Of a stretch of 64,000 bases of DNA, positions 1-16,015 are shown one piece after another (the first letter of the stretch is position 1; each line of letters opens with the position of its first letter). The stretch is from the NCBI GenBank assembly GCA_017303575.1, contig JAFLCL010000010.1, forward strand, positions 1-64,000, read 5' to 3'. The notes below the pieces were generated by a model that saw only the letters and a list, made by a program, of their open reading frames with translations, ran no database searches and was not told the origin of the DNA. The translations under genes were made by a program, and so were the position numbers. The DNA comes from Deltaproteobacteria bacterium (GTDB lineage: Bacteria; Myxococcota_A; Polyangia; Polyangiales; Sandaracinaceae).

Positions 1-102
1 ACCGCTGTCGCCGTCGAGCGCCCGGCGCGCACGGCGCGACCGCCGCTGCCGCCCACGTTCCGTCCCGCCTCCGAACGCACCGAACAGGTCACGAGGATCC
101 GC
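1..102 (+). other. Left-edge sequence, frame open into the first gene
   Basis: No separate gene is visible here. Read in the frame of the dehydrogenase that starts at 103, the stretch has no stop codon, so the reading frame is open to the window edge. A GAGGA purine run about seven bases before the ATG at 103 favours that ATG as the real start. A longer protein or an N-terminal fusion cannot be excluded without the upstream sequence. Confidence 0.5.
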
Positions 103-1272
103 ATGTCCGACGACGTCATCCGTCCGCTCCAGGCCGCGCGCGCAGGCGATGGCCCGAACCCCGACCGCACGTTCCGCGGCAAGGTCCTCGTCACCGGCGC
201 GAGCGGGCACCTGGGTGCCAATCTCGTGCGACGTCTCCTCGCCGACGGCCAGGACGTGCGCGTCATTCTCCGCCGTGAGAGCAACAACGCGGCTGTCGAC
301 GGCCTCGACGTCGAGCGCGTGTACGGCGATCTGCGCGACCTCGACTTCGTCGCCCGCGCGGTCAAGGGCTGCACGACTGCCTATCACGTCGCCGCCCACG
401 TCTCGACGCTGGAGCCGACGGCCGAGCTCGAGCGCACGATCTGGGAGTCCAACGTGCTCGGAACGCAGCACGTGCTCCGCGCCGCGCTCCACTACGGTCT
501 CGAGCGCGTCGTCGTCACCGGTAGCTTCAGCGCGGTCGGTTACGACCTCGATGATCCGCAGCGCCCCGGCAACGAGACGATGACGCATTATCCGTTCGGC
601 GGCGTGCTGCCTTATGGACAGACCAAGGCGCTCGTGGAGCTCGAGTCCTGGAAGGCGGCGCTCGAAGGCCTGGACGTCGTCGTCGCCACCTCGTGCGCCA
701 TCCTCGGGCCGCACGATCACAAGCCCTCTCGCATGGGCTTCACGCTGGTCGACTTCGCCCACGGCAAGGTGCCCGCGTACATCCCCGGTGGCTTCGACTT
801 CGTCGCCGCCAGAGACATCTGCGAGGGCCACGTGCTCGCGATGCGCCGCGGCCGCAGCGGTCAGAAGTACGTGATCTCGTCGCAGTTCCTCGCGATGGAC
901 GACATCATGGACATCTTCGAGGAGGTCACGGGCCGCCGCCGCCCGCGCATCAAGCTGAGCCCCTCGATGATGGCGCGCGTGGCCAAGGTCTCGAGCTTCG
1001 TGCTCGACAACTTCGCGCCCCACGTGCCGCAGCGCTTCACGCCCGGCGCCGTGCGCATCCTCCGCATGCAGCGCCACGCCGACATCAGCAAGGCGCGCGC
1101 GGAGCTCGGCTACGAGCCGACGTCGATCCGCCGCGCGGTGCACGAGGCCTATGCAGACTTCGCGCGTCGCGGCCTCGTGCCGGTGCGTGCGGGCATGGTC
1201 GATCCGGCCGAGCCTCGCAGCGAGTCCCGCGCCAAGACCCAGAGCGACGCACGCGCCGCCGAGACGGCCTGA
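103..1272 (+). CDS. NAD-dependent 3-beta-hydroxysteroid dehydrogenase/epimerase-family protein, probable sterol C-4 decarboxylating dehydrogenase (SdmB-like)
   Basis: This is an extended short-chain dehydrogenase of 389 aa. The N-terminal nucleotide-binding motif TGASGHLG lies at residues 31-38, and the catalytic Tyr/Lys pair is in YGQTK (Tyr171, Lys175). The family covers 3-beta-HSD, sterol-4-carboxylate 3-dehydrogenase (decarboxylating) and NAD-dependent epimerases. The next gene, 16 bp downstream, is a Rieske oxygenase, followed by squalene and sterol enzymes. In Methylococcus a Rieske oxygenase (SdmA) and an NAD-dependent 3-beta-HSD-type enzyme (SdmB) together remove a sterol C-4 methyl group, and this pair fits that pattern. 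The substrate is inferred from context; a sugar epimerase or hopanoid-linked HpnA-type role is the alternative. The C-terminal 25 residues are charged and probably disordered. Confidence 0.72.
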   Translation: MSDDVIRPLQAARAGDGPNPDRTFRGKVLVTGASGHLGANLVRRLLADGQDVRVILRRESNNAAVDGLDVERVYGDLRDLDFVARAVKGCTTAYHVAAHVSTLEPTAELERTIWESNVLGTQHVLRAALHYGLERVVVTGSFSAVGYDLDDPQRPGNETMTHYPFGGVLPYGQTKALVELESWKAALEGLDVVVATSCAILGPHDHKPSRMGFTLVDFAHGKVPAYIPGGFDFVAARDICEGHVLAMRRGRSGQKYVISSQFLAMDDIMDIFEEVTGRRRPRIKLSPSMMARVAKVSSFVLDNFAPHVPQRFTPGAVRILRMQRHADISKARAELGYEPTSIRRAVHEAYADFARRGLVPVRAGMVDPAEPRSESRAKTQSDARAAETA

Positions 1273-1288
1273 GCCGAGGGAGGCAGTC

Positions 1289-2524
1289 ATGGGAGACCAT
1301 CAGTCCCGAGAGAGCCAGTCCAGGACGCGCCGCGGGCCGAGCGACGGAACCGATCCGAAGCCCGTCGCCCCCGGATTTCTCGAGGCCACGAACCGCCGTC
1401 AGAAGGTCCGCGCAGCGGGCCTCGATCCCAACCACTGGTATCCGGTCGAGCACGACGGCGCGATCGCGAAGGGCCAAGTCGTGGAGGTCGTCTTCTGGCG
1501 TGAATCCGTCGCCGTGTTCCGCGACGACGAGGGGCGCCTCCACGCCGTCGAGAACCGTTGTGCACACCGTCAGCTCAAGCTGAGCAAGGGCATGGTCCAG
1601 AAGGACAAGCTCGTGTGCGCCTACCATGGTTGGCAGTTCAACGGCTGCGGCGAGCTGGCCGCGGTGCCGCACGAGACGTTCGGCAAGAAGGCACCTGCCT
1701 GCAAGCTCGAGACGTATCCGCTGCGCGTGCGTTACGGCCTCGTGTGGCTGTTCTTCGGTGACGCGTCGCGCGCGGACGCGACGCCGATGCCCGAGATCCC
1801 CGAGCTCGAGGGCCCGAAGGCCTGGGAGTGCGTGCCCGTCGACTTCGTGTGGAACGCGCACCACTCGATGATCATCGACAACGTCTCGGACTTCACCCAC
1901 GAGTTCCTGCACCGCAAGTACAAGCCGTTCACGGATGCGCGCCTGACGCGCCTCGAGACCGTCGGCGACGCCGTGCACGTGGAGTACGACACGAAGGTCG
2001 GCGGCGGGAAGATCTCCGGTCTCTTCGTGGACCGGGCGCGCATCGACACCAACTCGATGAAGCTCTGTTACGAGTATCCGTACCAGTGGTCGAACACCGA
2101 CGAGAAGATCAAGCACTGGTGCTTCGTGCTGCCGATCGACGAGCGCACGACCCGCACGTTCTTCCTGTTCTATTTCGACAGCTTCGTCGTCCCCTTCACG
2201 AGGGTGAAGATCCCGCGACGCATGATGAGGCCGTTCCTGCGTCTCTCGAATCGCCTCCTCGTGCAGCCGCTCCTCTCCGAGGACGGCGTCGCGGTGGAAG
2301 CGGAGCAAGAGGGCTACGAGGCGCACTGGGACGCTCCCGTCGCGGAGATGAACCCCGCGGTCAACGCGTTCCAGGCGCTCACCGTACGCAAGTGGGACGA
2401 GCACCTCGCGCGCGAGCGATCACGGCGTGAAGAGAAGGAGCGGGCTCGGCTCCTCCGCAAGCAGCGGTTGGAGCAGGCAGACGCGGACGCGCGCGCGGCG
2501 GACGCCGCCGTGGGAGGCGAGTGA
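1289..2524 (+). CDS. Rieske non-heme iron oxygenase, probable sterol C-4 methyl oxidase (SdmA-like)
   Basis: This is a 411-aa oxygenase alpha-subunit-like protein. The Rieske [2Fe-2S] ligands are visible as CAH (Cys91, His93) and CAYH (Cys110, His113). The mononuclear iron site follows in DFTHEFLH (Asp201, His204, His208). The start ATG at 1289 has a GGGAGG ribosome site just upstream; an earlier in-frame start at 1151 would overlap the previous gene by more than 120 bp and is rejected. The gene lies between the 3-beta-HSD-like gene and a flavin reductase and is nearly contiguous with both. Family knowledge: Rieske oxygenases need an electron-supplying reductase, and none is encoded nearby. 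Context suggests oxidation of a sterol C-4 methyl, as for SdmA. Cholesterol-7-desaturase-type or aromatic-ring oxygenation are alternatives. Confidence 0.75.
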   Translation: MGDHQSRESQSRTRRGPSDGTDPKPVAPGFLEATNRRQKVRAAGLDPNHWYPVEHDGAIAKGQVVEVVFWRESVAVFRDDEGRLHAVENRCAHRQLKLSKGMVQKDKLVCAYHGWQFNGCGELAAVPHETFGKKAPACKLETYPLRVRYGLVWLFFGDASRADATPMPEIPELEGPKAWECVPVDFVWNAHHSMIIDNVSDFTHEFLHRKYKPFTDARLTRLETVGDAVHVEYDTKVGGGKISGLFVDRARIDTNSMKLCYEYPYQWSNTDEKIKHWCFVLPIDERTTRTFFLFYFDSFVVPFTRVKIPRRMMRPFLRLSNRLLVQPLLSEDGVAVEAEQEGYEAHWDAPVAEMNPAVNAFQALTVRKWDEHLARERSRREEKERARLLRKQRLEQADADARAADAAVGGE

Positions 2525-2525
2525 C

Positions 2526-3653
2526 ATGACGAGCGAGAACATCGACCGAACGGCCAACGTGGTCATCCTGGGCGCCGGCCCGGCCGGCACGGCGGCCGCG
2601 GCGCAGCTGGGCCTCCTCGGCGTGCGAGACGTCGTGCTCGTCGATCGACACGACTTCCCGCGCGACAAGACCTGCGGCAGTGGTCTGTCCCCGCGTGGCA
2701 TCGAGACGCTGAAAGAGCTCGGCGTCTGGGAAGACGTGAAGGCTCACAGCTATCCGATCCACGGCATGCGTCTCGTGACGCGTGGCGATCGCGAGAGCTG
2801 GCAGTCGGCGGGCGAGCAAGCGGCGGCGGTGGTCTGTCAGCGCCGCATCCTCGATCACCTCCTCCTCAAGAAGGCCCTGTCGCGTGGCGTGAAGTTCATC
2901 CCGAACTTCAACGCGACCGAGGTGCTGAAAGAGGGTGAGCGCGTCGTCGGCATCAAGGCCGCGGATGGCACCACGGTCCGCGCGAAGTACGTGCTGATCG
3001 CCGGCGGCTCGCACTGCCGCGTGGGTCTGCCCGAGCAACGCCCGCGCCGCATCATCCAAGCGATCATGGGCTGGTGGGACAACGTCCCCTTCCGCGCTCA
3101 TCACCTCGAGATGATCTTCGACGCGTCGATCGAGCCCTACTACGGCTGGTTGTTCCCGGAGAGCGAGACGCGGGTCAACATCGGCATCACGTACGAAGAG
3201 CGCGACGGCAAGCAGAATGCGCGCGAGCTCTTCCAGCGCTTCCTCGACAAGCACTACGGAGAGCGCCTGAAGGGCGCGACCCAGGTCGGTGGCTGGAAGG
3301 GCCACCCGGTCGTGTGGTCCTACGCGATCGAGAAGCTCACCGCGCCGGGCCGGATCGTGATCGGCGAGTCCGGTCTCATGACCCATCCGGCGACGGCCGA
3401 GGGCATCTACCAGGCGATGAAGTCCGGCATGCTGGGGGCCGGGGCCATCGCCGACATCCTCAGCGGCCGTCGCAGCGAGACCTCCGCGTTCTCCGACTAC
3501 GAGCGTCGCTGTAAGTCCCAGTTCCTCCTCTCGTTCTGGGCGGGTGGCGTGTTCCGACGCGTCGCGCGCACGGACGCGCTCGACTGGGTCGTGCAGGCCA
3601 GTCAGGTCCCCGCGGTGAAGTCCACCGCGGCGCGCATCCTCGCGTCTCTCTGA
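2526..3653 (+). CDS. Geranylgeranyl-reductase-family FAD-dependent oxidoreductase, candidate sterol or isoprenoid double-bond reductase
   Basis: This 375-aa flavoprotein has the FAD dinucleotide motif GAGPAG near the N-terminus and the family signature KTCGSGLSPRG. Later come the substrate-domain motif YGWLFPE and a GD-type motif in altered form (IGESGLMTHPATAEGI). Members of this family saturate isoprenoid double bonds (ChlP, archaeal lipid GGR) or act as flavin monooxygenases. The start codon lies one base after the stop of the Rieske gene, so the two are probably translationally coupled. Inside a sterol operon a reductase of the sterol side chain (C-24) or nucleus (C-14) is the most attractive role, since no other sterol reductase is visible in the window. 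That assignment is inference only; quinone or polyprenol reduction remains possible. Confidence 0.7.
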   Translation: MTSENIDRTANVVILGAGPAGTAAAAQLGLLGVRDVVLVDRHDFPRDKTCGSGLSPRGIETLKELGVWEDVKAHSYPIHGMRLVTRGDRESWQSAGEQAAAVVCQRRILDHLLLKKALSRGVKFIPNFNATEVLKEGERVVGIKAADGTTVRAKYVLIAGGSHCRVGLPEQRPRRIIQAIMGWWDNVPFRAHHLEMIFDASIEPYYGWLFPESETRVNIGITYEERDGKQNARELFQRFLDKHYGERLKGATQVGGWKGHPVVWSYAIEKLTAPGRIVIGESGLMTHPATAEGIYQAMKSGMLGAGAIADILSGRRSETSAFSDYERRCKSQFLLSFWAGGVFRRVARTDALDWVVQASQVPAVKSTAARILASL

Positions 3654-3668
3654 GCTCGACCTGGTGCC

Positions 3669-6600
3669 ATGCCCCAGAATCGACACGATGTCGTCGTGCT
3701 CGGCGCAGGTCCCGCGGGCTGCGCCGCTGCACTGACGTTCTCGCGACAGGGGCGCAGCGTCCTCCTCCTCGAGGCGGATCCTCGGAGGCACGATCGGCTC
3801 GGCTGTGAGTGGCTCCATCCGAGCGCGCTCGAGGTGCTCGAGCGTCTGGGAGTCGATCTCTTGCCGCCGCGACCGTTCCCCACGGGCCGCGGCTGGGCGT
3901 TCCACCCCGACGACGGCAGTGACCCGATCGTCGTGCCTTATGCGTCGGGCTCTCAAGGCATGGCGTGTCAGCACGACGTGCTCGTCGAGACGCTGCGCGA
4001 GCAGGCCTCGCGCGCGTCGAACGTGACCTATGTGCCGTTCGCGCGGGCGACGCGCATCGAGGGTCCGAGCGTGTCGTACGCGCGTCGCCTCGGCTCCGGC
4101 CGCGTCGAGGTGGAGTCGGCGCGCGGCGAGCTCGTCATCGGTGCGACGGGCCGTAGCGGTGCGCCGTTCTCCGAGGACGAGCCGCTCTACGTGGGCAGTC
4201 CGCCGTGCTCGCGCCTGCTCGGTCTCGTACTGCGCGACGCAGGCGAGCTGCCGTTCGAGGGATTCCAGCACATCGCGACGGGTGGCCCGGGGCCGGTCGT
4301 CCTTCATCGCCTCTCGCCGAGCGAGATTCGAGTCCTCCTCGACGTGCCCCTCTCGCTCGCGCTGCCGCCCCAGAAGGGACAATCCGAGCAGAGCCCCGAG
4401 CGCGCGCTGATCCTCGAAGAGGCCTATCGCTCGATGTTGCCGCCCTCGCTGCGCGGCGCGTTCCGCGAGGCGCTGCGCGCGCCGGGTGTCGAGTGGGCCT
4501 ACAACGCGGTTCGACCCCGGCAGGGATTCGGCAGTGGCGGCGCGCTGACGGGCGGCAGGCTCGCGCTCGTCGGCGACGCGCTCGGCCTCCAGCACCCGAT
4601 CACGTCGCTCGGCCTGGTGCTCGCGCTGCGCGACGTCGAGGATCTCTCCGCGAGCAGCACGCTGTCCGAATACGCCGATCGCCGACGAAGCGAGTCGCGC
4701 GTGCCGGAGATGATCGCGATCGCGCTCTATGAAGTGCTCGCCGATCAGGCCCAGTCCACCACGGCCATCCGCAATGCCATCTTCCGCATGCTGCGCGACA
4801 ACCCCGACGAGCGACTCCGCATGATGGCGCTCGTGTCGGGGCAGAACCGCAGTCGACTGGCGTTCTCGCGATCGTTCGCGACGATGATCCTGCGCGGTGG
4901 CCGAGACCTCGGCGTGTGGGGCGCGCGCACGGGTCGTCTGAAGGAGACCTCTGCGCTGGTGACCGACATCGGCGGACGCCTCGGCTGGCTGCTCGGCGGG
5001 ACGATGCGGGCGACGTCGGTGGCCTCGACGCACAAGGGACCTCGCACGGCAGAGGAGCAATACGGCGCAGCGCTCCGTGCCTCGCGCGCAGGGGCCGAGG
5101 TCGTCGGGCTCGCGAGCGCGGGTGCACGGCCGCCCGTGTCGAAGATCTCGCCCGCCACGGCGCTCGAACGAGCTTTCGCCGCGCTCGCCGACGAGCAGGA
5201 CGCGGACGGCTCGTTCGAGGGCGAGGTCGTGTGGTGCGCCATGCTGCCCGCGCAGTACGTGCTCGCGATGCACGTGCTCGGTCAGCCGATCGACGAGACG
5301 CGTCGCCGTCGCTTGATCCTGCAGTTCGAGCGTACCCGCGACGCGCAGGGCACCTGGGGCCTCCACTCGCTGTCGGAGCCCTATCTCTTCGTCACGACGC
5401 TCGTGTACGTCGCTGCACGTCTGCTCGGTGTGGCCGCGAGCGACCCTCTGCTCTCGCCTGCACGTCGCCTGTTCGAGCGCGAGGGTGGCATTCTGGCGAT
5501 TCCGTCGTGGGGAAAGCTGTGGCTCGCGCTGCTCGGTCTCTGGCGCTGGGAGGGTGTCAATCCGGTCTTGCCGGAGGCATGGAGTCTCCCCACGTCCGCG
5601 CCGATTCATCCGTCTCGCTATTACTGCCACACGCGCAACATCTATTTGGCGATGGCCACGCTCTACGGCGAGCGCTTCGTCGGGCCTGTCACGCCGCGCA
5701 TCCACGACCTCAGGCAGGAGCTCTTCCCTGGTGGCTTCGAGAGCGTCGATTTCGCGGGAGCTCGCGAGCGCTTGCGCGCCGAGGATCTCTGGTCGCCTCC
5801 GAGCGGCGCCCTCAAGATGGTGTTCCGCGCGTCCAAGCTCTTCGAGCGCGCGTGGGTGCGCAAGGGCGCGCACGAGCCGGGTCCGCGTCAACGCCTCTTG
5901 TCGGAGCTGCGCGATCAGATCCGCTACGAGATGCGCAGTACGCACCACACGTGCATCTCGCCGGTGAGCGGTCTCCTCGGGATGGTCGCCCTCCACGCGG
6001 CCGATCCCAACGATCCGGACGTCGTGCGCGCGCTCGCCGCGTTCGAGGGCTGGATCTGGGAAGACGATGTCGATGGCCTGCGAGTCGCCGGCGCGCGCAG
6101 CGCCTCGTGGGATACCGCGTTCGCGCTCCAGGCGATGTCGGCCGCACGGCCCCACGTCGCCGCGAATCCCCAGCTCGCCGACGTGGTGGACGACGCGATC
6201 ACCCGAGCCGATGCGTTCCTCGCGAGCCAGCAAGTGACCGAGGCCACGGGCCGCGAGGCCGAGCACTTCCGCCTCGATCCGCGCGGTGGCTGGTGCTTCG
6301 CGGGCGTCTGGCACGGCTGGCCCGTGAGCGACTGCACCGCAGAGGCGGTGCTCGGTCGTCTCTCGCTCGTGACGCCCCACATGGGCCGTGACGAGATCAC
6401 GCGCGCGGTGCAATTCATACTCCGCACGCAGAGCTCGGACGGCGGCTTCGGCAGCTACGAAGCGCGCCGCGTCGATGTCCCGCTCGAGTGGATGAACCCC
6501 GCCGAGATGTTCGGCGACTCCATGACGGAGAAGTCGTACGTCGAGTGCACCGCGTCGTGCATCGCCGCGCTCGCGGAGGTGCGCAGACTGCACCCCTCGA

Positions 6601-7160
6601 TCCTCCCCGACGAGATCGAGGGTGCCATTCGGCGCGCGGCCCAGTGTCTCCGTGGACAGCAGAAGACCGACGGATCGTGGGTCGGTGTCTGGGGCATCCT
6701 GCACGTCTACGGCACGATGTTCGGCATTCGTGGTCTCTTGGCCGCGGGCGTGCCGCCGCACGATCCCGCGATCCGCCGCGCGACAGCCTTCCTGCGAGCA
6801 CGTCAGAAGCCGGATGGTGGTTGGGGCGAGCACTGGACGTCGATCTCGGAGAAGCGGTACGTCGAGCACCGCGCGAGCCAGTACGTCCAGACCGCGTGGG
6901 CGATGACGGCGCTGCTCGAGGCCGAGGATCCGGACTTCGGAGCAGTCGAACGCGCTGCTGCGTTCCTCGCGGGCGCGCAGTCCGCGGACGGGACGTTCCC
7001 CGTGCAGGATCCCGAGGGCCTCTTCTTCCACTCGGCCCTCCTCGATTACGTGCTCTACCGCCGCTATTTCCCCGTGTGGGCGCTCGGTCTGTTCGAGACG
7101 CGACGCAAGGAGCGCAGTCGCTCCGGCTCGCTGCGTGCACACGACAACGCCCACCCGTGA
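3669..7160 (+). CDS. Fusion of squalene-monooxygenase-like domain and oxidosqualene cyclase (lanosterol/cycloartenol synthase type)
   Basis: The 1163-aa protein joins two pathway enzymes. Residues 1 to about 470 are squalene-monooxygenase-like: FAD motif GAGPAGCAAA, the EWLHP segment, and the conserved GDALGLQHPITSLGL that binds FAD in this family. The usual DG motif is poor here (GATGRSG, residues 158-164). After a linker, residues about 495-1140 are an alpha-toroid cyclase. The catalytic motif is VSDCTAE (Asp888), which defines oxidosqualene cyclases; squalene-hopene cyclases have DxDDTA. QW repeats such as QSSDGGFGSYE and QKPDGGWGEHW follow. The order suggests epoxidation of squalene and cyclisation of the epoxide in one polypeptide. 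The frame has no break across the linker. Whether the monooxygenase half is active is uncertain. The product could be lanosterol, cycloartenol or parkeol. Confidence 0.88.
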   Translation: MPQNRHDVVVLGAGPAGCAAALTFSRQGRSVLLLEADPRRHDRLGCEWLHPSALEVLERLGVDLLPPRPFPTGRGWAFHPDDGSDPIVVPYASGSQGMACQHDVLVETLREQASRASNVTYVPFARATRIEGPSVSYARRLGSGRVEVESARGELVIGATGRSGAPFSEDEPLYVGSPPCSRLLGLVLRDAGELPFEGFQHIATGGPGPVVLHRLSPSEIRVLLDVPLSLALPPQKGQSEQSPERALILEEAYRSMLPPSLRGAFREALRAPGVEWAYNAVRPRQGFGSGGALTGGRLALVGDALGLQHPITSLGLVLALRDVEDLSASSTLSEYADRRRSESRVPEMIAIALYEVLADQAQSTTAIRNAIFRMLRDNPDERLRMMALVSGQNRSRLAFSRSFATMILRGGRDLGVWGARTGRLKETSALVTDIGGRLGWLLGGTMRATSVASTHKGPRTAEEQYGAALRASRAGAEVVGLASAGARPPVSKISPATALERAFAALADEQDADGSFEGEVVWCAMLPAQYVLAMHVLGQPIDETRRRRLILQFERTRDAQGTWGLHSLSEPYLFVTTLVYVAARLLGVAASDPLLSPARRLFEREGGILAIPSWGKLWLALLGLWRWEGVNPVLPEAWSLPTSAPIHPSRYYCHTRNIYLAMATLYGERFVGPVTPRIHDLRQELFPGGFESVDFAGARERLRAEDLWSPPSGALKMVFRASKLFERAWVRKGAHEPGPRQRLLSELRDQIRYEMRSTHHTCISPVSGLLGMVALHAADPNDPDVVRALAAFEGWIWEDDVDGLRVAGARSASWDTAFALQAMSAARPHVAANPQLADVVDDAITRADAFLASQQVTEATGREAEHFRLDPRGGWCFAGVWHGWPVSDCTAEAVLGRLSLVTPHMGRDEITRAVQFILRTQSSDGGFGSYEARRVDVPLEWMNPAEMFGDSMTEKSYVECTASCIAALAEVRRLHPSILPDEIEGAIRRAAQCLRGQQKTDGSWVGVWGILHVYGTMFGIRGLLAAGVPPHDPAIRRATAFLRARQKPDGGWGEHWTSISEKRYVEHRASQYVQTAWAMTALLEAEDPDFGAVERAAAFLAGAQSADGTFPVQDPEGLFFHSALLDYVLYRRYFPVWALGLFETRRKERSRSGSLRAHDNAHP

Positions 7161-7174
7161 GAGTCGGAGACATC

Positions 7175-10100
7175 ATGAGCTCACACGAAGAACAGTGGTC
7201 CGCGACCCCGATCGAAGAGACCTACGATGCCGTCGTCGTCGGTGGTGGGCCGGTGGGCTGCGTCACGGCGGCGGCCCTCGGCCGCGCCGGCGCGACGGTC
7301 CTCGTCGTCGAGGCCGACCCGAAGATGGCGCACCGACTCGCGGGCGAGTGGCTGCATCCACCCGCGCTCGAGGTGCTGGATCGGCTGCGCCTCGGGCGTC
7401 TCGACGGTGCTGCACCGCAGACCGGCTATGGATTCACCATCTTTCCCGACGATGGCTCGCCGGACATCGAGATGCCTTATCCCGAAGGCACCGGGATGGG
7501 CGCGGAGCACGCGCGCATCGTCGAGGCACTGCGTCTCTCGTTGGCGCGCGTGGCGGGCGTCTCGTTCCTCCTTCGTGCGCGGGTGACGTCACTCGATCTC
7601 TCGGGCCCCGAGGCGATCGTGCGCATCGAGCGCAAGGACGGTCGCGTTCACGCCGTGCGCGCGCGCGCCGTCGTGGGCGCCGAGGGCAAGGTCTCGCTCG
7701 TGCGCTCGGCGTTGGGGATTCCCGACGCGAGCACGCTCGTGTCGTCGATGGCGGGCGTCGAGCTCGAGGTCCCGCGGATGCCGCGCGAGGGGTTCGGCCA
7801 CGTCGTCCTCGGCGGCCCTGGCCCTGCGCTCTTCTATCGGATCGACGACACGCACGTGCGTGGCTGTCTGGAAGTACCGCTGTCCGATCGTGCGACGGCG
7901 CGCGGTCCGTACCTCTGGGAGCGCTATGGGGCGGTGGTGCCCGAGGCGCTGCGCGAGCCGCTGCGCGTGGCGACGCACGAGCGACCGATCCTCTGGACAG
8001 GCATCAAGTTCCGTCCGCGCGCGTACTTCGGTCGTGAAGGTCGCGAGGGTCAGGTGCCCGTCGCGCTCGTGGGTGACGCCTGCGGCCACACACATCCGAT
8101 GACGGCGATCGGCATGACCCAGGGCTTCCTCGACGCCGAGGCGCTCGCGCAGTCTGGCTTCGCGACCGCACAGCGTGGCTGGCTCGCGCGCTACTCCGAG
8201 GCACGCGGCGCAGCGATCCCCGAGATCCTCTCGAACGCCCTCTATCATTGCTTCCGGCGCAACGATCCGGCCGCGACGGAGGTGCGTCGCGCGATGTTCA
8301 AGACGCTTCGCGACAGCCCGCGCGAGCGCGGCCGCACGATGCAGATCCTCGGCGTGCAGGACTCGCACAAGCGCAGCTTCTCGAGCGCGTTCATGCGTAT
8401 CGCGCTCCGCGCGATGAAGAGCACCGTGACGACCACTGCCTCCGAAGGTGGCCTCCGCGCGCTGCCCTCGCGCCTCTGGGCGTTCGGCGAATGGATGCAA
8501 TGGCCCACGGCCGCCGTGGTGCCCGGGCGCGTCTCGGCCCTCTACCGCGCGGAGACCACTTCGGACCGGGCGCTCCCCCGCCTGCGTCCAGGACGCCAGG
8601 ACACGGCCCGCGAGCTGTCGCGTCAGCCGTCTCGCAGCGCGGTCACGCGCGAGCGCGTCGCGAACGAGGCCGACCGTCGCATCCTCGAGGTCGCGAGCGC
8701 ACATCTCCTCTCCGAGCTCGAGGCGATCGCACGTCGGCTCGGCACCGTGCCCGATGCCGAGCTCGCGGGTCCGTCGCTCACGCTCATGCGCGCGATCACG
8801 GCGTGTCCGATGCGGCCGGGCATGGCGGCGCGCATGACGCTCGGACGACGACGCCTCGCGACGGAAGGTGTCTCGCGTGCCGTGCGCGCCGACGCCGACA
8901 CGCGCCTCCTCGCGAGCCTCGTGCTCGTTCTCTTCGATGGTGCACCGTGGGGCGAGGAGCGCGTCGTCGACCTCGACGTGGCGGTGACCCACCTCCTCGC
9001 GAGCGAGGCGTCTGGCGGTGGTTTTGCGAACCGACGCGGTGAGCCCGCGGATCTGGAGACGTCGGCGCTCGTCCTCGAGGCGCTGAGCGCGCTCTCCACG
9101 CAGAGCGACGCTGCGCGTGAGGCCCTCGTCAGCGTGCGCGCCCGCAGCCGCGCGTGGCTGGAGACGGAGCTCGCGAACGTGGCCGGGACGCAGGATCTGT
9201 CCCTCGCCGCCCGTGTGCTCGCGATGTCGGAGCGCGATGCCGCGCTGATCGACGCGGTCTCGGCGCGCCTCGCGTCGGCTGACACCGACGACGACCGGTC
9301 GCTCGCGGCCGTGGTCCTGGCGCTCGCGGTGCTTCGCGTCGACGATCCTCGTATCGCCGCGCTCGGAGCCGCTCTGACCGAGCGCCTCGCGCATCCTCGC
9401 GAGATCGCATGGCCCACCTTGGCGGCGATGGTGATGGCCTTTGCCGCGCATGCATCGCGGCCCGTGGCCCGAGGATCCAGCAAGGCGTCCAAGGACGCTG
9501 CGGCGGCAGTCGGCGCGGGCGAAGCGCGCCAGGCGCGCGCCGAGCATGGCAGCTCCGAGGACGCCAGTCCCAAAGATGCCAGTCTCGAACATGGCAGTCT
9601 GGAGCATGGCAGTCTGGAGCATGCCAGTCCCGAGCATGCCAGTCCGAAGGCGGCCCCTCCGAACGCTGCCACGCCCACGGTGCCGGCTCGCGGGGAAGGT
9701 GAGCGCTCGGTTCCTCCCGAGGCCGCCGATTGGGCCTTCTGCAAAGAAGCGCTCGAGGCCGTGTCGCGCACGTTCTCGCAGCCGATCGCGTTCCTCCCCG
9801 AGGAGCTGCGCGTCGCCGTGACGCTCGGCTACCTGCTCTGTCGCATCGCCGACACGATCGAGGATCACCCTGCCGTCACGAGCGGCGAGAAGCCCGAGCT
9901 CTTCGCGCGCTTCCTCGAGGTCATGGAGTCGTCGGTCGATCGTCCGCTCGGTTCGACGATCGACACCGCGGCGCTGCGCGCGCTCTTCGGCGCCGTTCGC
10001 GCACCCGACGACGCCGAGCTCTCGCTCGCGCGTCGCACCGACGTCGTGGTCCGCGTGCTGATGACGCTCCGCAAGCCGGTGCGCGAGATCCTCTCGCGCT

Positions 10101-10786
10101 GGGTGTGCGAGATGGCGCGCGGCATGGACCTCTACACGCGTCGTCGTCCGGGGGAGGACGGTTGGTACGCGCTCCACACCGTCGAGGACCTCGATCGGTA
10201 CTGCTACTACGTGGCCGGCACGGTCGGGCACCTGCTGACCGATCTCTTCCTCGAGTCCACGGGGATCGATCCGCGCTCGGCGCACGCGCTCGCGCTCCGT
10301 GAGGACGCGGAGAGCTTCGCCGAGGGCCTCCAGATGGTGAACATCCTCAAGGACGTCACCGACGATCGTGAGCGGCTGGTGTCGTTCGTGCCGCGCACGT
10401 CCATGCAGCGCGAGGGCCTCGAGCCCACGACGCTCACCGATCGCGAGGTTCGCGATCGAGCACACGCTGCGGTCGCACCGCTCTTCGATCGTGCCGAGGC
10501 CCACCTCGATCGGGCGCTCCGCTACGCGCTCGCGATCCCGCCGAGCGAGACGGGCATTCGGATGTTCTGTCTCCTGCCGCTCTTCATGGCGGTGCGAACG
10601 CTCGTCGTCGCGCGCGGCAACGATGCGATGTTCGTGCCCGACGCGGCGGTGAAGATCTCACGCGAGGAGGTCACCTCGATCATCGCCGACTGTCTTCGTC
10701 ACTCCGGGGACGACGACGTGCTCCGCGCGCGCTATGCGGCGCTCCGCGAGCGTCCTGTCGAGCGCCCTCTCCGCGCGCAGGCCTGA
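7175..10786 (+). CDS. Fusion of squalene-monooxygenase-like domain, degenerate cyclase-like region and squalene synthase
   Basis: This is a 1203-aa multidomain protein starting 14 bp after the cyclase fusion. Residues 1 to about 480 resemble squalene monooxygenase: FAD motif GGGPVG, EWLHPPALEVL, an intact DG-type motif GAEGKVSLVR (residues 168-177) and GDACGHTHPMTAIGM. Residues about 496-762 are helical, with a QW-like fragment SGGGF followed by repeating Leu/Ala-rich helices, and look like an eroded cyclase toroid. A repetitive linker follows. Residues about 849-1195 are a trans-prenyl squalene synthase: Asp-rich motif DTIED (893-897), YCYYVAGTVG, and the second motif DVTDD (1060-1064). It would condense FPP to squalene and epoxidise it in one chain. 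A phytoene-synthase activity for the C-terminal domain is less likely in this operon. Confidence 0.85.
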   Translation: MSSHEEQWSATPIEETYDAVVVGGGPVGCVTAAALGRAGATVLVVEADPKMAHRLAGEWLHPPALEVLDRLRLGRLDGAAPQTGYGFTIFPDDGSPDIEMPYPEGTGMGAEHARIVEALRLSLARVAGVSFLLRARVTSLDLSGPEAIVRIERKDGRVHAVRARAVVGAEGKVSLVRSALGIPDASTLVSSMAGVELEVPRMPREGFGHVVLGGPGPALFYRIDDTHVRGCLEVPLSDRATARGPYLWERYGAVVPEALREPLRVATHERPILWTGIKFRPRAYFGREGREGQVPVALVGDACGHTHPMTAIGMTQGFLDAEALAQSGFATAQRGWLARYSEARGAAIPEILSNALYHCFRRNDPAATEVRRAMFKTLRDSPRERGRTMQILGVQDSHKRSFSSAFMRIALRAMKSTVTTTASEGGLRALPSRLWAFGEWMQWPTAAVVPGRVSALYRAETTSDRALPRLRPGRQDTARELSRQPSRSAVTRERVANEADRRILEVASAHLLSELEAIARRLGTVPDAELAGPSLTLMRAITACPMRPGMAARMTLGRRRLATEGVSRAVRADADTRLLASLVLVLFDGAPWGEERVVDLDVAVTHLLASEASGGGFANRRGEPADLETSALVLEALSALSTQSDAAREALVSVRARSRAWLETELANVAGTQDLSLAARVLAMSERDAALIDAVSARLASADTDDDRSLAAVVLALAVLRVDDPRIAALGAALTERLAHPREIAWPTLAAMVMAFAAHASRPVARGSSKASKDAAAAVGAGEARQARAEHGSSEDASPKDASLEHGSLEHGSLEHASPEHASPKAAPPNAATPTVPARGEGERSVPPEAADWAFCKEALEAVSRTFSQPIAFLPEELRVAVTLGYLLCRIADTIEDHPAVTSGEKPELFARFLEVMESSVDRPLGSTIDTAALRALFGAVRAPDDAELSLARRTDVVVRVLMTLRKPVREILSRWVCEMARGMDLYTRRRPGEDGWYALHTVEDLDRYCYYVAGTVGHLLTDLFLESTGIDPRSAHALALREDAESFAEGLQMVNILKDVTDDRERLVSFVPRTSMQREGLEPTTLTDREVRDRAHAAVAPLFDRAEAHLDRALRYALAIPPSETGIRMFCLLPLFMAVRTLVVARGNDAMFVPDAAVKISREEVTSIIADCLRHSGDDDVLRARYAALRERPVERPLRAQA
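9542..9646 (+). repeat. 15-bp minisatellite, seven units, in the fusion-protein linker
   Basis: Seven tandem 15-base units related to GAGCATGGCAGTCTG lie inside the coding sequence and keep frame. They encode a pentapeptide of the type (E/K)(H/D)(A/G)S(P/L). The repeat sits between the cyclase-like region and the squalene synthase domain, so it lengthens a flexible tether. Some neighbouring units are identical, which indicates recent slippage or unequal crossing over. Confidence 0.9.
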
Positions 10787-10826
10787 GCCAGCGCCCGATC
10801 CCATCGCGACACACACGAGACGAGTC

Positions 10827-11927
10827 ATGAGCACTTCCACGAGCGAGACGTCCAGCGAGGCCCACATGTCGAGCGAGATCAAGCCGGCGAGCTGGCTCGA
10901 CACCGTGCGGCGCGCCGTCGACGAGCGCCTGACACGCTTCTTCGACGAGGAGCGCTCGGCCGTCGGCACGCTCGCGCCGGATGCGGCGATCGTGCTCGCA
11001 GGCCTCGAGTCGCTGACGTTGCGTGGCGGAAAGCGGCTGCGACCGGCCATGCTCGTCGCGGCGCAGCGCGCGATCGATCCACGCGCGCCCCTCTCGGGTG
11101 TGCTCTCGGCGTGTGCGTCGCTGGAGGTGTTGCAGAGCTACCTCTTGATCCACGACGACTGGATGGATGGCGACGACGAGCGTCGCGGGGGACCGGCGGT
11201 CCACGTGCTCGTGCGACGCGAGCTCGGCAGTCGCGGCGAGGGCGTCGTCGGGGCGCACCTCGCGGACTCGCTCGCGGTGCTCGCCGGCGATCTCGGCTGC
11301 GCGTACGCGAACCGACTCTTCCTCGAGAGCGCGCTCGGCAGCCGCCGTGCGGGTGAGGCGATGGAGACGTTTCTCCGCGTGCAGCGGGACGTCGTGCTCG
11401 GTCAGACGCTCGATCTCCTCGGCAGCGCCGACGTCTCGCGCATGCACGATCTCAAGACAGGCAGCTACACGGTCGAAGGGCCGCTGCTCCTCGGGGCGAT
11501 CCTCGCGGATGCGAGCGCTGCGCAGATCGAGGCCCTCCGGCGCATCGCGCGGCCTCTGGGCGAGGCGTTCCAGGTGCGCGACGACCTGCTCGGATCCTTC
11601 GGCGATCCGAAGAAGACGGGCAAGCCTGTGGGCAACGACCTCCGCGTGGGCAAGCACAACGCGATCGTGCGCGAGTGCGAGGCGAGCGTGCCCGTGGCTG
11701 ACCGCGCGCCGCTCACGAAGATCCTCGGACGCGCCGACGCGACGGACGCGGACGTGCGCACGGCGATCGCGATGCTCGAGACCGCAGGCGTTCGCGCGCG
11801 CGTCGAGGCGAAGCTCGCTTCGCTCGTCGAGGCGGCCAAGGCGCCGCTCACGGCGGCGCCGTTCTCGCCCGAGGGCAGTCGCGCGATCGGCGAGCTCGCC
11901 GATCTGTTCGGTGCGCGCGAGTCCTGA
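10827..11927 (+). CDS. Polyprenyl diphosphate synthase (farnesyl/geranylgeranyl diphosphate synthase family)
   Basis: This is a 366-aa trans-isoprenyl diphosphate synthase. The first Asp-rich motif, in HDDWMDGD, starts at Asp110, and the second region, DDLLGSFGD, starts at Asp252, followed by GKPVGNDL. GGKRLRP near residue 70 is the usual diphosphate-binding site. It makes short-chain allylic diphosphates from IPP and DMAPP. Placed directly after the squalene synthase fusion, it most likely supplies FPP for squalene. Chain length cannot be fixed from the visible motifs, and GGPP is possible. ATG at 10827 is chosen; a second in-frame ATG at 10866 would remove only a Ser/Thr-rich tail that precedes the conserved fold. 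Confidence 0.85.
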   Translation: MSTSTSETSSEAHMSSEIKPASWLDTVRRAVDERLTRFFDEERSAVGTLAPDAAIVLAGLESLTLRGGKRLRPAMLVAAQRAIDPRAPLSGVLSACASLEVLQSYLLIHDDWMDGDDERRGGPAVHVLVRRELGSRGEGVVGAHLADSLAVLAGDLGCAYANRLFLESALGSRRAGEAMETFLRVQRDVVLGQTLDLLGSADVSRMHDLKTGSYTVEGPLLLGAILADASAAQIEALRRIARPLGEAFQVRDDLLGSFGDPKKTGKPVGNDLRVGKHNAIVRECEASVPVADRAPLTKILGRADATDADVRTAIAMLETAGVRARVEAKLASLVEAAKAPLTAAPFSPEGSRAIGELADLFGARES

Positions 11928-11988
11928 TCGCGTACGCACGGGCGCTCCTCGACTGGCACTCTTCCCGTCTCCCCATCCGGCGGTGCTC

Positions 11989-13812: not shown

Positions 13813-13815
13813 CGC

Positions 13816-14637
13816 TCAGCGGATCGTGAGGAGCGCGATCGTGGTGATCAGCGCGATCGTGGTGAGGACGCCGTAGGTCACGAGCCAAGGTCGCGGAGGC
13901 GCCGCCCTCGAGGGCGCGGCGCCACCCATTGCGACTGCATCGCTCGAGGCGCCCACGGACGACAGAGGCGCAACGATCGGCAGCAGCACCGCGTTCCGCG
14001 CGTGGGTGCGGGCGGGCACGCTGCGTGGGTAGGGGTGCGCGTCGTCGAGGCGAGCCTCGCGCGAGGACGTTCCGACCGCGGTCCTCGACGAGGTCGTGTC
14101 GGAGCCGGAGCCGAACGGCTGCGTCTGATCGTCGCGACGCGCACCAGTCGCTGAGGGCGCTGCGACCGGCGGGAGCGCGTCCATCTCGTCGGACCCCACC
14201 GTCGGAAGGAGCTGCGTGGCGCTGCGGCGCTCCGCGCGCATCTCGACGTCGCCCACCACCTCGTAGACGCCGCTACCCGCTTCCGACATGCGCTGCGTGA
14301 TGATGTGGTCCCGGCTCGGCGGCACCGAGCGCATCGCCTTCGCGAGCAGGGACGTGACCTCCATGCGCGTCGTCGGGCGCTCGGGCGTGCGTCGAGAGAG
14401 CGCGCGGAGGTTCGACGGAGTCGAGGCGGGCATGCGAGCCGTCACGCGCTGGGAAACCAAGGCTTCTGGCTGGCCGCTCGGGTCGACCTGCATCGCCTCG
14501 ATGCAGTCGTCGATCTCCCGATCGCGCGGCCGGGTGACGATACGCTCGCGAGGCTCGGCGGCCGCGATCGTGGGCTCGGAAGCGAGCAGGTCAGACCAGT
14601 CCTGGTCCTTCAGCGCCGACGTCGTCGTTGGGTCCAC
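13816..14637 (-). CDS. Hypothetical protein with C-terminal membrane anchor
   Basis: I do not recognise this 273-aa protein. It is hydrophilic and rich in Arg, Ser and Thr. It ends with one strongly hydrophobic segment of about 20 residues rich in Leu, Ile and Thr (about 250-270), so it is probably tail-anchored with most of the chain in the cytoplasm. It converges on the CYP51 gene with a three-base gap. The start is a GTG without a clear ribosome site, so the N-terminus is uncertain; an internal ATG at residue 49 is an option. Low complexity over much of its length suggests disorder. A link to the sterol genes rests on position only. Confidence 0.55.
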   Translation of the reverse strand: MDPTTTSALKDQDWSDLLASEPTIAAAEPRERIVTRPRDREIDDCIEAMQVDPSGQPEALVSQRVTARMPASTPSNLRALSRRTPERPTTRMEVTSLLAKAMRSVPPSRDHIITQRMSEAGSGVYEVVGDVEMRAERRSATQLLPTVGSDEMDALPPVAAPSATGARRDDQTQPFGSGSDTTSSRTAVGTSSREARLDDAHPYPRSVPARTHARNAVLLPIVAPLSSVGASSDAVAMGGAAPSRAAPPRPWLVTYGVLTTIALITTIALLTIR

Positions 14638-14746
14638 CGCAGCGCTTCGTGCGAACGAAGCGGGACTTGAGGAGAAAACGGCATCGTCGCCACGATGCGG
14701 ACGATCTTCGCGCCTCGGCGGAACGACCGAGTGGTGCGAACGCGCG

Positions 14747-16015
14747 TCAGTCGCCGCGCATCGGCGGCACGGGAAGGAGCGACGCGCGCGACTTGCGACC
14801 CGCCTCCGTGTGCGGGTCGTTCTTCTCGGCCTCGTCCTTGATCTCGGTGCTCCCCACGAACGGGAATGCCTGCTGGCCCACGAACGAGGCCGGCACGTAG
14901 TCGCCCACCACGCCGTATGTGTCGGGCCACTTGCGATCGGCCTGCACCGCGGTGCCGAACAGGTGATCGATGAACGCGAAGTGCGCCGCGTAATTGCGGT
15001 CGATCGCCTCGGTGTCTTGCGAGTGATGCCAGTGGTGGAAGTTCGGCGTCACGATCACGTACGACAGCGGCCCGAGGCGCACGCTCACGTTCGCGTGATT
15101 GAACACGGCCTGGAATCCGACGATGACGACGTACGCATCGATCACGTCCTGCGGGAAGCCGAGGAGGAAGATCGGCGTGAGCACCGCGATGCGCGTGATG
15201 ATCAGCTCGACGATCGACTGACGCGATCCCGCGAGCCAGTCCATGTGCTTGGCGCTGTGGTGCACGGAGTGGAAGCGCCAGAGAAACGGCACCTCGTGGT
15301 ACGCGCGGTGCGCCCAGTACTGCACGAGATCGGCGGCCAGGATCACGAGGAAGAGCTGCACGATGAAGGGCAGCGCCTGCACCCAACCCTGCAACGTGTC
15401 GTTCACGGCCCAGCCGAAGAGGCCGTGGACCGCGCGGTTCGTCACGAGCAGGGTGAACCCCACACACAGGTGGTTCACGAAGAAGTGCTGGAGGTCCGTC
15501 TGCCACTCGGGTCGGAACACCGGCTGTGTCTTCTTGAGCGGGAAGAGCTTCTCGATGAACACGAAGAGCAGCGTCGAGCCGAGCAGATCGAGGACGAAGA
15601 AGTCCAAGCCCACGTAGGGCGTGTGATCGGGAAAGTCCTCGATCGGGGTGCCGGGTCCGCCGAGGAGCAGCGCTGTGACGAGGAACGCGAAGGCCCACGC
15701 GGAGATGTAGCGAGCCCGGCCGAGCACGATGTTCGTGAGCGCCAGCGCGCCCGCGAGCACCATGCCTCCGAAGAGCAGGTAGCGAAGGACCGTGACGTCG
15801 TAGACGTGCCGGAACTCGGGCGTCGTGAGGTACGCGGGGAAGCGCATCGCGAGCACGGAGAGCACCGCGAGCATGCCGAGCGACAGCGCGATGACGCCGC
15901 TCAAGAGCCCTTTCCCCGGCTCGAGGGCGCCGTGCGACTCCGCGAGCTTGTTGACCTTGCCGAGGCTCGACTCGGCGTCCGATGTCTTGTCCGATGTCTG
16001 GGGTTTTTCGCTCAT
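14747..16015 (-). CDS. Sterol desaturase / fatty acid hydroxylase superfamily protein (ERG3-like)
   Basis: This is a 422-aa integral membrane di-iron enzyme. The histidine clusters are HRAYH, HSVHH and HHWHH, in the order and spacing of the fatty-acid-hydroxylase/sterol-desaturase superfamily, with several hydrophobic segments before them. The first part (about 40-190) has extra membrane helices. Superfamily members include sterol C-5 desaturase and C-4 methyl oxidase. A plus-strand sterol operon ends less than 1 kb away, so a sterol substrate is likely, C-5 desaturation being the simplest guess. The ATG at 16015 is used because longer in-frame starts run into the upstream lipoprotein gene, whose stop lies four bases away. 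The two minus-strand genes are probably co-transcribed. Confidence 0.82.
   Translation of the reverse strand: MSEKPQTSDKTSDAESSLGKVNKLAESHGALEPGKGLLSGVIALSLGMLAVLSVLAMRFPAYLTTPEFRHVYDVTVLRYLLFGGMVLAGALALTNIVLGRARYISAWAFAFLVTALLLGGPGTPIEDFPDHTPYVGLDFFVLDLLGSTLLFVFIEKLFPLKKTQPVFRPEWQTDLQHFFVNHLCVGFTLLVTNRAVHGLFGWAVNDTLQGWVQALPFIVQLFLVILAADLVQYWAHRAYHEVPFLWRFHSVHHSAKHMDWLAGSRQSIVELIITRIAVLTPIFLLGFPQDVIDAYVVIVGFQAVFNHANVSVRLGPLSYVIVTPNFHHWHHSQDTEAIDRNYAAHFAFIDHLFGTAVQADRKWPDTYGVVGDYVPASFVGQQAFPFVGSTEIKDEAEKNDPHTEAGRKSRASLLPVPPMRGD

What the first reader, a model, noticed from the sequence alone, without database searches (positions are those of the whole stretch)
103..16015. A bacterial sterol biosynthesis locus encoding a near-complete early and middle pathway
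Seven contiguous plus-strand genes plus one opposite-strand gene encode a polyprenyl diphosphate synthase, squalene synthase, two squalene-monooxygenase-like domains, oxidosqualene cyclase (SDCTAE motif), CYP51, an SdmA/SdmB-like pair, a GGR-family reductase and a sterol desaturase. Gaps within the run are 1 to 61 bp. Sterol synthesis is rare in bacteria, and such a compact locus with three fusions is unusual. Missing or unassigned steps are a C-14 reductase, a C-8 isomerase and an electron-supplying reductase.
Basis: partly seen in the sequence, partly recalled or inferred. Interest (0 to 1): 0.93.

Follow-up and report, generated by a model that had tools for sequence, protein, structure and literature searches.

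The report
Sterol operon with reciprocally decayed fusions
This bacterial DNA carries a sterol-making gene cluster of the kind already published for Sandaracinus amylolyticus, and two neighbouring fused genes in it mirror each other: one has an intact cyclase half but an epoxidase half that has lost many conserved positions, the other has a well-kept epoxidase half but only a remnant of a cyclase, so the first sterol steps are likely shared out between the two proteins.

Summary
The locus is real: a sterol gene cluster orthologous in content and order to the published one of Sandaracinus amylolyticus, a cultured cholesterol maker, so the pathway is not new and is usual in the family. Corrections: (1) the window starts at a contig end; the first gene is the 3' part of an HMG-CoA reductase-SdmB fusion, its other part very likely on contig C537. 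(2) A C-14 reductase is in the genome (contig C273). (3) The opposite-strand desaturase is a weak assignment. New point: gene 5 is SQMO - remnant of the C-terminal half of an oxidosqualene cyclase - squalene synthase; the remnant lacks the catalytic motif (0 of 83 have it). In gene 4 the cyclase is intact, but its SQMO domain has eroded. Among 51 SQMO-bearing genomes of the order, the 8 with two SQMOs are all of this family; there the cyclase-fused SQMO diverges 1.5 times as fast as its cyclase, against 1.0 in one-SQMO genomes. Erosion is uneven: some relatives are nearly intact. Best reading: gene 5 makes oxidosqualene, gene 4 cyclises it. No activity was tested; the eroded domains form one clade, so this is one evolutionary event.

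The parts
1..1272 (+). 3' part of an HMG-CoA reductase-SdmB fusion gene; SdmB (3beta-HSD/epimerase family) domain from about base 103; the HMGR part is predicted to be on contig C537
   Evidence: frame open from base 1; SdmB NCBIfam NF052578 302 bits, below its cut-off of 600; HMGR and SdmB in one open frame in 6 of the 6 loci with an SdmB match over 150 bits, out of 13 loci scanned; HMGR at C537:161-1288 runs open to that contig's edge
1289..2524 (+). SdmA-like Rieske oxygenase (C-4 demethylation)
   Evidence: NF052579 408 bits, cut-off 600; 69 and 72% identical to the proteins at the same place in two S. amylolyticus genomes
2526..3653 (+). GGR-family reductase, orthologue of the C-24 sterol reductase Bsr
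   Evidence: 72% identical to the S. amylolyticus protein at the same place; YGWLFP and TCGSGL in the translation fit the YxWxFP motif and active-site Cys named for Bsr in PMC12004948
3669..7160 (+). gene 4: SQMO-OSC fusion
   Evidence: AlphaFold2 model pLDDT 86.7, pTM 0.89
3669..4958 (+). gene 4 N-terminal SQMO domain, predicted inactive (eroded)
   Evidence: 17 of 76 conserved SQMO columns lost; no D/E, S or R in the DG motif; still SQLE-like in predicted fold
5136..7118 (+). gene 4 oxidosqualene cyclase domain, predicted lanosterol synthase; SDCTAE at 6327-6344
   Evidence: 403 bits to human lanosterol synthase against 169 to squalene-hopene cyclase; V at the position aligned with human V453
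7175..10786 (+). gene 5: SQMO - OSC remnant - squalene synthase
7175..8464 (+). gene 5 SQMO domain, predicted the working epoxidase
   Evidence: keeps E, S and R in the DG motif; 0.91 of conserved columns; best PDB sequence match squalene monooxygenase
8660..9484 (+). gene 5 middle domain: remnant of the C-terminal half of an OSC, no DCTAE
9725..10786 (+). gene 5 squalene synthase domain
   Evidence: SQS_PSY 156 bits; D-rich motifs nearly invariant in alignment A1
10827..11927 (+). polyprenyl (predicted farnesyl) diphosphate synthase
   Evidence: polyprenyl_synt 145 bits
11989..13812 (+). CYP51-ferredoxin fusion (P450 about 12064-13341, ferredoxin about 13621-13794)
   Evidence: p450 243 bits and Fer4_15 42 bits; 525 bits to solved CYP51 6mcw
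14747..16015 (-). FA_hydroxylase/sterol desaturase family protein; part in the pathway unproven
   Evidence: PF04116 106 bits; one of 12 matches in the genome; 91% identical neighbour in same-genus G175

Best explanation
Bases 1-13812 hold most of a sterol gene cluster of a Sandaracinaceae bacterium, predicted to turn farnesyl diphosphate into a C-14- and C-4-demethylated sterol with a saturated side chain, in which gene 5 (SQMO - cyclase remnant - squalene synthase) likely makes 2,3-oxidosqualene and gene 4 (eroded SQMO - intact cyclase) likely cyclises it to lanosterol. Shown by sequence: the domains and their order, the absent cyclase motif in gene 5, the lost conserved residues in the gene 4 SQMO domain, and the orthology with the S. 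amylolyticus cluster. Inferred: HMGR-SdmB supplies mevalonate and, with SdmA, removes the C-4 methyls; the polyprenyl synthase makes farnesyl diphosphate; CYP51 with its fused ferredoxin removes the C-14 methyl; the delta-14 reductase encoded elsewhere reduces the new double bond; the GGR protein (Bsr) reduces C-24. Inferred history: gene 4 comes from the SQMO-OSC fusion that is the only SQMO detected in family f11 (taken to be Polyangiaceae); gene 5 comes from a second, old SQMO lineage that also once carried an OSC. Where both meet, the SQMO of gene 4 is no longer needed and erodes.
For: Cluster identity: OSC 403 bits to human lanosterol synthase with DCTAE and V453; CYP51 525 bits to 6mcw; Bsr 72%, SdmA 69-72%, SdmB 65%, CYP51 77-79% identical to the S. 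amylolyticus proteins in the same order; S. amylolyticus makes cholesterol and its Bsr reduces C-24 (PMC12004948). Delta-14 reductase elsewhere in the genome. Two SQMOs: 8 of 51 SQMO-bearing genomes (E <= 1e-30, at most 9 candidates scored per genome) out of 183 searched, all of the window's family. Erosion: conserved-column retention 0.70-0.83 in 8 gene-4 rows from family loci, 0.89-0.93 in 9 gene-5 rows, 0.97-1.00 in 13 one-SQMO fusions of f11; with the columns taken from SQMOs outside these lineages 0.66-0.77, 0.85-0.91 and 0.92-0.96. In 18 database pairs of a gene-4 and a gene-5 protein on contigs of identical length (taken as the same contig) the gene-4 SQMO keeps less in 17, mean 0.77 against 0.92. 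Divergence ratio SQMO/OSC 1.50 (1.33-1.62; 16 of 21 pairs) among 7 of the 8 two-SQMO genomes and 0.99 (0.71-1.17; 62 of 78 pairs) among 13 one-SQMO genomes. Tree: gene-4 SQMOs one clade (100/100) inside the f11 fusions (100/97); gene-5 SQMOs in another clade (95/95). Remnant: (DC[TS]A in 0 of 83).
Against: No activity was measured. The eroded domains form one clade, so it is one evolutionary event and its link with the second SQMO is not replicated; the 8 locus rows stand for about four lineages. Loss of the DG-motif Asp/Arg alone does not prove inactivity: the one-SQMO f11 fusions lack them too (GASGR..AH), as do five standalone SQMOs of another genus (L112, L113, L114, L116, L119). The eroded domain still keeps GAGPAG and the GD motif and an SQLE-like predicted fold, so it may still bind FAD. 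A stretch before the cyclase remnant is well conserved (W5 residues 551-565, mean column identity 0.79), so the middle domain is not free of constraint. No EBP isomerase passes the Pfam cut-off in any of 10 family genomes, S. amylolyticus included, so that step is unexplained.
Confidence: 0.7

Rival explanations
1. Both SQMO domains are active: the gene 4 domain still epoxidises squalene, or has taken a changed task such as a second epoxidation (dioxidosqualene), and its divergence is adaptation, not decay.
For: It keeps GxGxxG and the GD motif and an SQLE-like predicted fold; the seven family genes taken uncut have open frames of 1152 aa or more without stops; some relatives with both genes keep 0.89-0.91 of the conserved columns.
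Against: Different conserved residues are lost in different genera (S. amylolyticus H307P/T310P; window G57C/T315V; L003 and L004 G25S/R172A), and the domain diverges 1.5 times as fast as its cyclase: the pattern of relaxed constraint.
Confidence: 0.22
2. An ordinary sterol cluster of a known kind; the differing domain rates have no functional meaning and the fusions are chance joins of adjacent genes.
For: Cluster and product are published for S. amylolyticus (PMC12004948); fused SMO/OSC is mentioned in print; in other genomes SQMO and OSC are separate neighbours (L007, L017, L018).
Against: The rate contrast does not overlap between one-SQMO and two-SQMO genomes; the OSC-derived domain inside gene 5 lacks the catalytic motif in all 83 proteins checked, yet is kept.
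Confidence: 0.15
3. The first gene is a plain SdmB; the open frame upstream is an accident of high G+C.
For: High G+C gives long open frames, and the window's own HMGR part lies on another contig. In L160 (G174) the SdmB match is weak (62 bits) and its frame was not tested.
Against: HMGR and SdmB share one open frame, with no stop between them, in 6 of the 6 loci with an SdmB match over 150 bits.
Confidence: 0.05

Closest known systems
Sterol (cholesterol) gene cluster of Sandaracinus amylolyticus (PMC12004948; text parts 1-4 of 7 read, figures not seen; genome G180, loci L155-L156, read here)
   Same: HMGR-SdmB, SdmA, Bsr, SQMO-OSC, SQMO-middle-SQS, CYP51-ferredoxin in the same order
   Different: There an ERG24-family gene lies between the two big fusions and no polyprenyl synthase match lies before CYP51; that genome has two PF01222 proteins, the window's one
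SQMO-OSC fusion of Polyangium (P0040, P0061 by name) and of genomes G148-G153, G169-G171 and others of family f11
   Same: Same domain order; the window's SQMO domain nests in this clade
   Different: There it is the only SQMO detected and nearly all conserved columns are kept
SQMO-middle-SQS protein of other Myxococcota (e.g. Cystobacter fuscus P0196; L015, L016, L024, L025, L027, L028)
   Same: Same three parts
   Different: In those six loci the OSC is a separate gene without an SQMO part
CYP51-ferredoxin fusion with solved structure 6mcw (Methylococcus capsulatus; organism recalled)
   Same: P450 match of 525 bits in a 551-residue CYP51 chain; C-terminal ferredoxin in the window's protein
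   Different: The window's protein is longer (607 aa), with a Pro/Ala-rich linker

Membership tests
Oxidosqualene cyclase, lanosterol type (gene 4 C-terminal) | DCTAE motif and full-length match to OSC rather than to squalene-hopene cyclase | tested here: met
   403 bits to 1w6k over query residues 25-668 against 169 to SHC; VSDCTAEA aligned
Oxidosqualene cyclase, lanosterol type (gene 4 C-terminal) | Val at human position 453 (Ile for cycloartenol; rule as given in a passage of PMC10152446) | tested here: met
   GWPVSDCTAE against human GWIVSDCTAE (numbering of the human residue taken from that rule)
Oxidosqualene cyclase (gene 5 middle domain) | catalytic DCTAE motif | tested here: not met
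   DC[TS]A in 0 of 83 middle domains (window plus 82 relatives)
Squalene monooxygenase (gene 5 N-terminal) | FAD motifs and SQMO-conserved columns | tested here: met
   (0.91 of 76 columns)
Squalene monooxygenase (gene 4 N-terminal) | SQMO-conserved columns kept as in one-SQMO genomes | tested here: not met
   0.78 kept in the window's domain; 8 rows 0.70-0.83 against 0.97-1.00 in 13 one-SQMO fusions (0.92-0.96 when these are left out of the reference)
SdmA/SdmB C-4 demethylase | match to the curated models over their cut-offs | tested here: inconclusive
   best matches are SdmB (302 bits) and SdmA (408 bits), both below the cut-offs of 600; 65-72% identical to the S. amylolyticus proteins
Bsr, bacterial C-24 sterol reductase | YxWxFP motif, active-site Cys, orthologue in a sterol cluster | tested here: met
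   activity was shown in print for the S. amylolyticus protein only
CYP51 sterol 14-demethylase | best relatives are CYP51 proteins | tested here: met
Delta-14 sterol reductase | a PF01222 protein in the genome, close to a solved delta-14 reductase | tested here: met
   C273, 395 bits to 4quv
Delta8-delta7 isomerase EBP | PF05241 match over the cut-off | tested here: inconclusive
   0 of 10 family genomes over the cut-off, S. amylolyticus included although it makes lathosterol
Sterol C-5 desaturase (gene on minus strand) | closer to sterol desaturases than to other PF04116 proteins | tested here: inconclusive
   best model OlsE 126 bits, cut-off 475; 12 PF04116 matches in the genome
Sterol producer | sterols in the cells | not testable with these tools
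   draft genome only

The most novel reading that the evidence does not exclude
Genes 4 and 5 encode one split two-protein machine: each carries the dead half of an ancestral SQMO-OSC fusion, and the two proteins bind each other through these vestigial halves, so that farnesyl diphosphate goes in at gene 5 and lanosterol comes out at gene 4 without free squalene or oxidosqualene. It would be a reciprocal, domain-level division of labour between two fused enzymes.
Probability: 0.3. Interest if true: 0.78.

Novelty: new variant of a known kind. Interest (0 to 1): 0.55.

Why it matters
The sterol pathway of Sandaracinaceae is known, but the protein that joins epoxidase, a cyclase remnant and squalene synthase, the HMG-CoA reductase-SdmB fusion, and the erosion of one epoxidase beside a second one did not turn up in the papers searched here (search listings; passages). 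They give a natural series: SQMO-OSC alone; eroding SQMO-OSC plus SQMO-remnant-SQS; free OSC plus SQMO-remnant-SQS. It makes testable how fused pathway enzymes share and lose work, tells annotators which epoxidase to test, and offers a single protein that may carry farnesyl diphosphate to oxidosqualene in E. coli.

Tried and rejected
Loss of the DG motif as proof of a dead epoxidase. At first it looked clean: a D or E kept in 0 of 5 gene-4 loci (in one, L029, gene 5 lies beyond the contig end), 10 of 10 gene-5 loci, 12 of 12 other SQMO-OSC loci, 69 of 79 standalone SQMOs, 6 of 115 database SQMO-OSC proteins and 84 of 85 database gene-5 proteins (the miss is a fragment). But one-SQMO fusions of family f11 lack it too, so I turned to all conserved columns and to rates.

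Gene 4 and gene 5 as a recent tandem duplication inside the family: rejected by the tree. Of its 13 gene-4 rows, 6 come from loci seen with both genes and 7 from database proteins.

Grouping by retention in the first rate test was circular; repeated with groups set by SQMO count per genome, leaving out G177, whose gene 4 is split over contigs.

Middle domain of gene 5 as hopene cyclase: in the five of six relatives scanned that list a cyclase match, the 2,3-oxidosqualene cyclase model was the highest cyclase model listed; a hopene model was listed for one. Foldseek found no PDB match at E <= 0.001 for the middle-domain model and put complement thioester domains first; the second aligner put OSC and SHC first, tied, so fold alone does not separate OSC from SHC.

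EBP: only sub-threshold matches. Which PF01222 protein of S. amylolyticus is the delta-14 and which the delta-7 reductase was not settled, so a lack of delta-7 reduction in the window's organism is only a suggestion.

Caps: the protein search scored 7996 candidates and listed 120 of 1846 hits, 115 of them at least 1080 aa; searches also scored capped sets (85 of the 97 hits were at least 980 aa and used). Genome searches scored at most 6, 11 and 9 candidates per genome.

Papers: PMC12004948 parts 1-4 of 7 and passages; PMC10202945 part 1 of 6 and passages; PMC13277303 part 1 of 7; PMC4919349, PMC12146001, PMC10152446, PMC10070321 passages only; no figures. Other papers only as listings, and only 20 of 37 and 15 of 27. 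A phylogenomic paper on bacterial steroid biosynthesis (Hoshino and Gaucher 2021, recalled) was not read and may mention the fusions.

Full report
What is there. The window is bases 1-64000 of contig C2 of a 9.39 Mb draft genome in 540 contigs, 93.7% complete. S. amylolyticus belongs to the same family: G180 is marked "same family" and its 10,327,335-base contig is the longest contig given for S. amylolyticus protein P0036; G181's 10,754,065-base contig is that of S. amylolyticus protein P0137. The family name Sandaracinaceae follows from this. From base 1 to 13812 seven genes run on the plus strand with gaps of 16, 1, 15, 14, 40 and 61 bp.

Identity of the cyclase and the P450. The OSC domain of gene 4 matches human lanosterol synthase at 403 bits and squalene-hopene cyclase at 169 bits, with VSDCTAEA aligned to the human catalytic site; by the rule quoted in PMC10152446 (passage) Val at 453 points to lanosterol. 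The P450 matches the solved CYP51 6mcw at 525 bits and carries a C-terminal ferredoxin.

Comparison with the known cluster. PMC12004948 (text parts 1-4 of 7 read, figures not seen) reports that S. amylolyticus makes cholesterol, has its sterol genes largely in one cluster, and that its GGR-family protein Bsr reduces C-24. Reading that genome here (L155, L156) gives HMGR-SdmB, SdmA, Bsr, SQMO-OSC, ERG24, SQMO-middle-SQS, CYP51-ferredoxin. The window has the same order without ERG24 and with a polyprenyl synthase before CYP51. The window's genome has one PF01222 protein, on contig C273, which matches a solved delta-14 sterol reductase at 395 bits; G180 and G181 have two. Nine of the 10 family genomes give an OSC-query match, one of them weak (E 3.5e-18). 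The pathway is therefore known and usual in the family.

A fourth fusion, cut by the contig end. In 6 of the 6 loci with an SdmB match over 150 bits (L002, L003, L029, L156, L157, L159; 13 loci scanned), SdmB shares one open frame with HMG-CoA reductase; in L159 the HMGR part is cut by the stretch fetched, and the weak SdmB match of L160 was not tested. In the window the SdmB frame is open to base 1. In the same genome an HMGR on C537 runs open to that contig's edge and is 89% identical to the HMGR part of L002. The two halves are very likely one gene; they were not joined.

Gene 4. The SQMO domain keeps GAGPAG and the GD motif but has none of the D/E, S and R of the DG motif. Over 76 columns conserved among other SQMOs it keeps 0.78; eight gene-4 rows from family loci keep 0.70-0.83, nine gene-5 rows 0.89-0.93, 13 one-SQMO fusions of family f11 0.97-1.00. 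Family f11 is taken to be Polyangiaceae because proteins named Polyangium (P0040, P0061) share its sequence features. With the conserved columns taken only from SQMOs outside these lineages the values are 0.66-0.77, 0.85-0.91 and 0.92-0.96. Some of the eight rows are near copies; they stand for about four lineages. The lost columns differ between genera.

Controls. Of 183 genomes of the order, 51 have an SQMO match at E <= 1e-30; 8 have two, and all 8 are of the window's family; at most 9 candidates per genome were scored. With groups set by that count, the divergence of SQMO relative to its own fused OSC is 1.50 (1.33-1.62) among 7 two-SQMO genomes (16 of 21 pairs, those with OSC identity under 0.75) and 0.99 (0.71-1.17) among 13 one-SQMO genomes (62 of 78 pairs). 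The ranges do not overlap, but some genomes are close relatives, so pairs are not independent. In the database lists 18 gene-4 and gene-5 proteins share a longest contig of identical length and are taken to lie on the same contig; the gene-4 SQMO keeps fewer conserved columns in 17 of 18 (mean 0.77 against 0.92), but four of these keep 0.89-0.91, and the one exception, P0046/P0177, keeps 0.95 against 0.92. That pair comes from different sources and may be a coincidence of length. The 97 unpaired gene-4 proteins have a median of 0.96.

History. In the SQMO tree of 76 rows, gene-4 domains form one clade (100/100) within the f11 fusions (100/97 for the 23 rows); gene-5 domains lie in another clade of 27 rows (95/95) that also holds six standalone SQMOs. 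The exact sister of the gene-4 clade is not resolved (82/21). So the two are old, separate lineages that meet in Sandaracinaceae, not a recent duplication. In six loci (L015, L016, L024, L025, L027, L028) gene 5 occurs with a free OSC. The three states form a plausible series. Because the eroded domains are one clade, the erosion counts as one event.

Against this reading. The DG motif is also missing in one-SQMO f11 fusions and in five standalone SQMOs of another genus, so it does not by itself show inactivity. Some gene-4 domains beside a gene 5 are nearly intact. The window's eroded domain is still predicted to fold like human SQLE. A stretch before the cyclase remnant is well conserved (residues 551-565), so the middle domain probably still does something, perhaps structural. 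No activity is known for either fusion.

What is not settled. No EBP passes the cut-off in any of 10 family genomes, S. amylolyticus included; the delta8-delta7 step must use a divergent or unrelated enzyme, or is missed by the search. The electron supply of SdmA and CYP51 beyond the fused ferredoxin was not examined. The minus-strand desaturase is 91% identical to a neighbour of the cluster in same-genus G175, while in G180 and G181 only a partial 40% match some kilobases away was seen.

Literature. Fused SMO/OSC is mentioned in the methods of PMC10070321 (passage). The words fusion and fused do not occur in the main texts of PMC12004948, PMC4919349 and PMC10202945. The listings (titles and starts of abstracts; two searches listed only part of the papers found) show nothing on the SQMO-remnant-SQS protein, the HMGR-SdmB fusion or the erosion; subscription papers are not held, so prior mention cannot be excluded.

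Verdict. A real, functional-looking sterol gene cluster of a known kind, with one new and testable point: two neighbouring fusions that appear to have divided an ancestral epoxidase-cyclase pair between them by reciprocal decay.

Noticed in passing
L002 8582-8872; genomes G175, G178, G179: SdmA was not found between SdmB and Bsr in L002, L003 and L029, nor in genomes G175, G178 and G179 at E <= 1e-30 (G179 is given as 100% complete), although HMGR-SdmB is present in L002, L003, L029 and L159; in L002 the gap holds low-complexity repeats. C-4 demethylation may work differently there.
   Followed up: partly
G180, G181 against G000: S. amylolyticus-type genomes have two PF01222 sterol reductases, the window's genome one; the window's organism may stop short of cholesterol.
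   Followed up: partly
one-SQMO fusions of family f11 (L071-L075, L077-L082, L086, L088): The only SQMO detected has Ser, Ala or Gly in place of the DG-motif Asp and His in place of Arg (GASGR..AH), a conserved variant of a motif usual in this enzyme class.
   Followed up: partly
P0046 and P0177: A well-kept SQMO-OSC (0.95) and an SQMO-middle-SQS protein whose longest contigs have the same length, 8473 bases; if truly one contig, both epoxidases are intact there.
   Followed up: no
P0211, P0212, P0213, P0214: Database proteins with other joins by their Pfam lists: squalene synthase with polyprenyl synthase, with an SdmB-like dehydrogenase, and with squalene-hopene cyclase.
   Followed up: no
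G000:C100:15920-16984: A second HMG-CoA reductase in the genome, in a frame of 404 aa.
   Followed up: no
window 13816-14637 (-): Open frame of 273 aa with no Pfam match and a hydrophobic C-terminal stretch, between CYP51 and the desaturase.
   Followed up: no
window about 9500-9690: Low-complexity linker (HGSLEHASPEHASPK repeats) before the squalene synthase domain of gene 5; most of these columns are gaps in the relatives.
   Followed up: no
window 10827-11927: The polyprenyl synthase's best NCBIfam match is a family 2 encapsulin cargo prenyltransferase, 184 bits, far below the cut-off of 450.
   Followed up: no
window 25198-26880 and 35976-37049: A flavoprotein with a weak tryptophan-halogenase match, and a radical SAM protein with a SPASM domain.
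   Followed up: no
window 16023-17165 (-) and 19984-22341 (+): A beta-propeller SMP-30/Vgb-lyase-like protein and an M23 peptidase with FG-GAP repeats.
   Followed up: no
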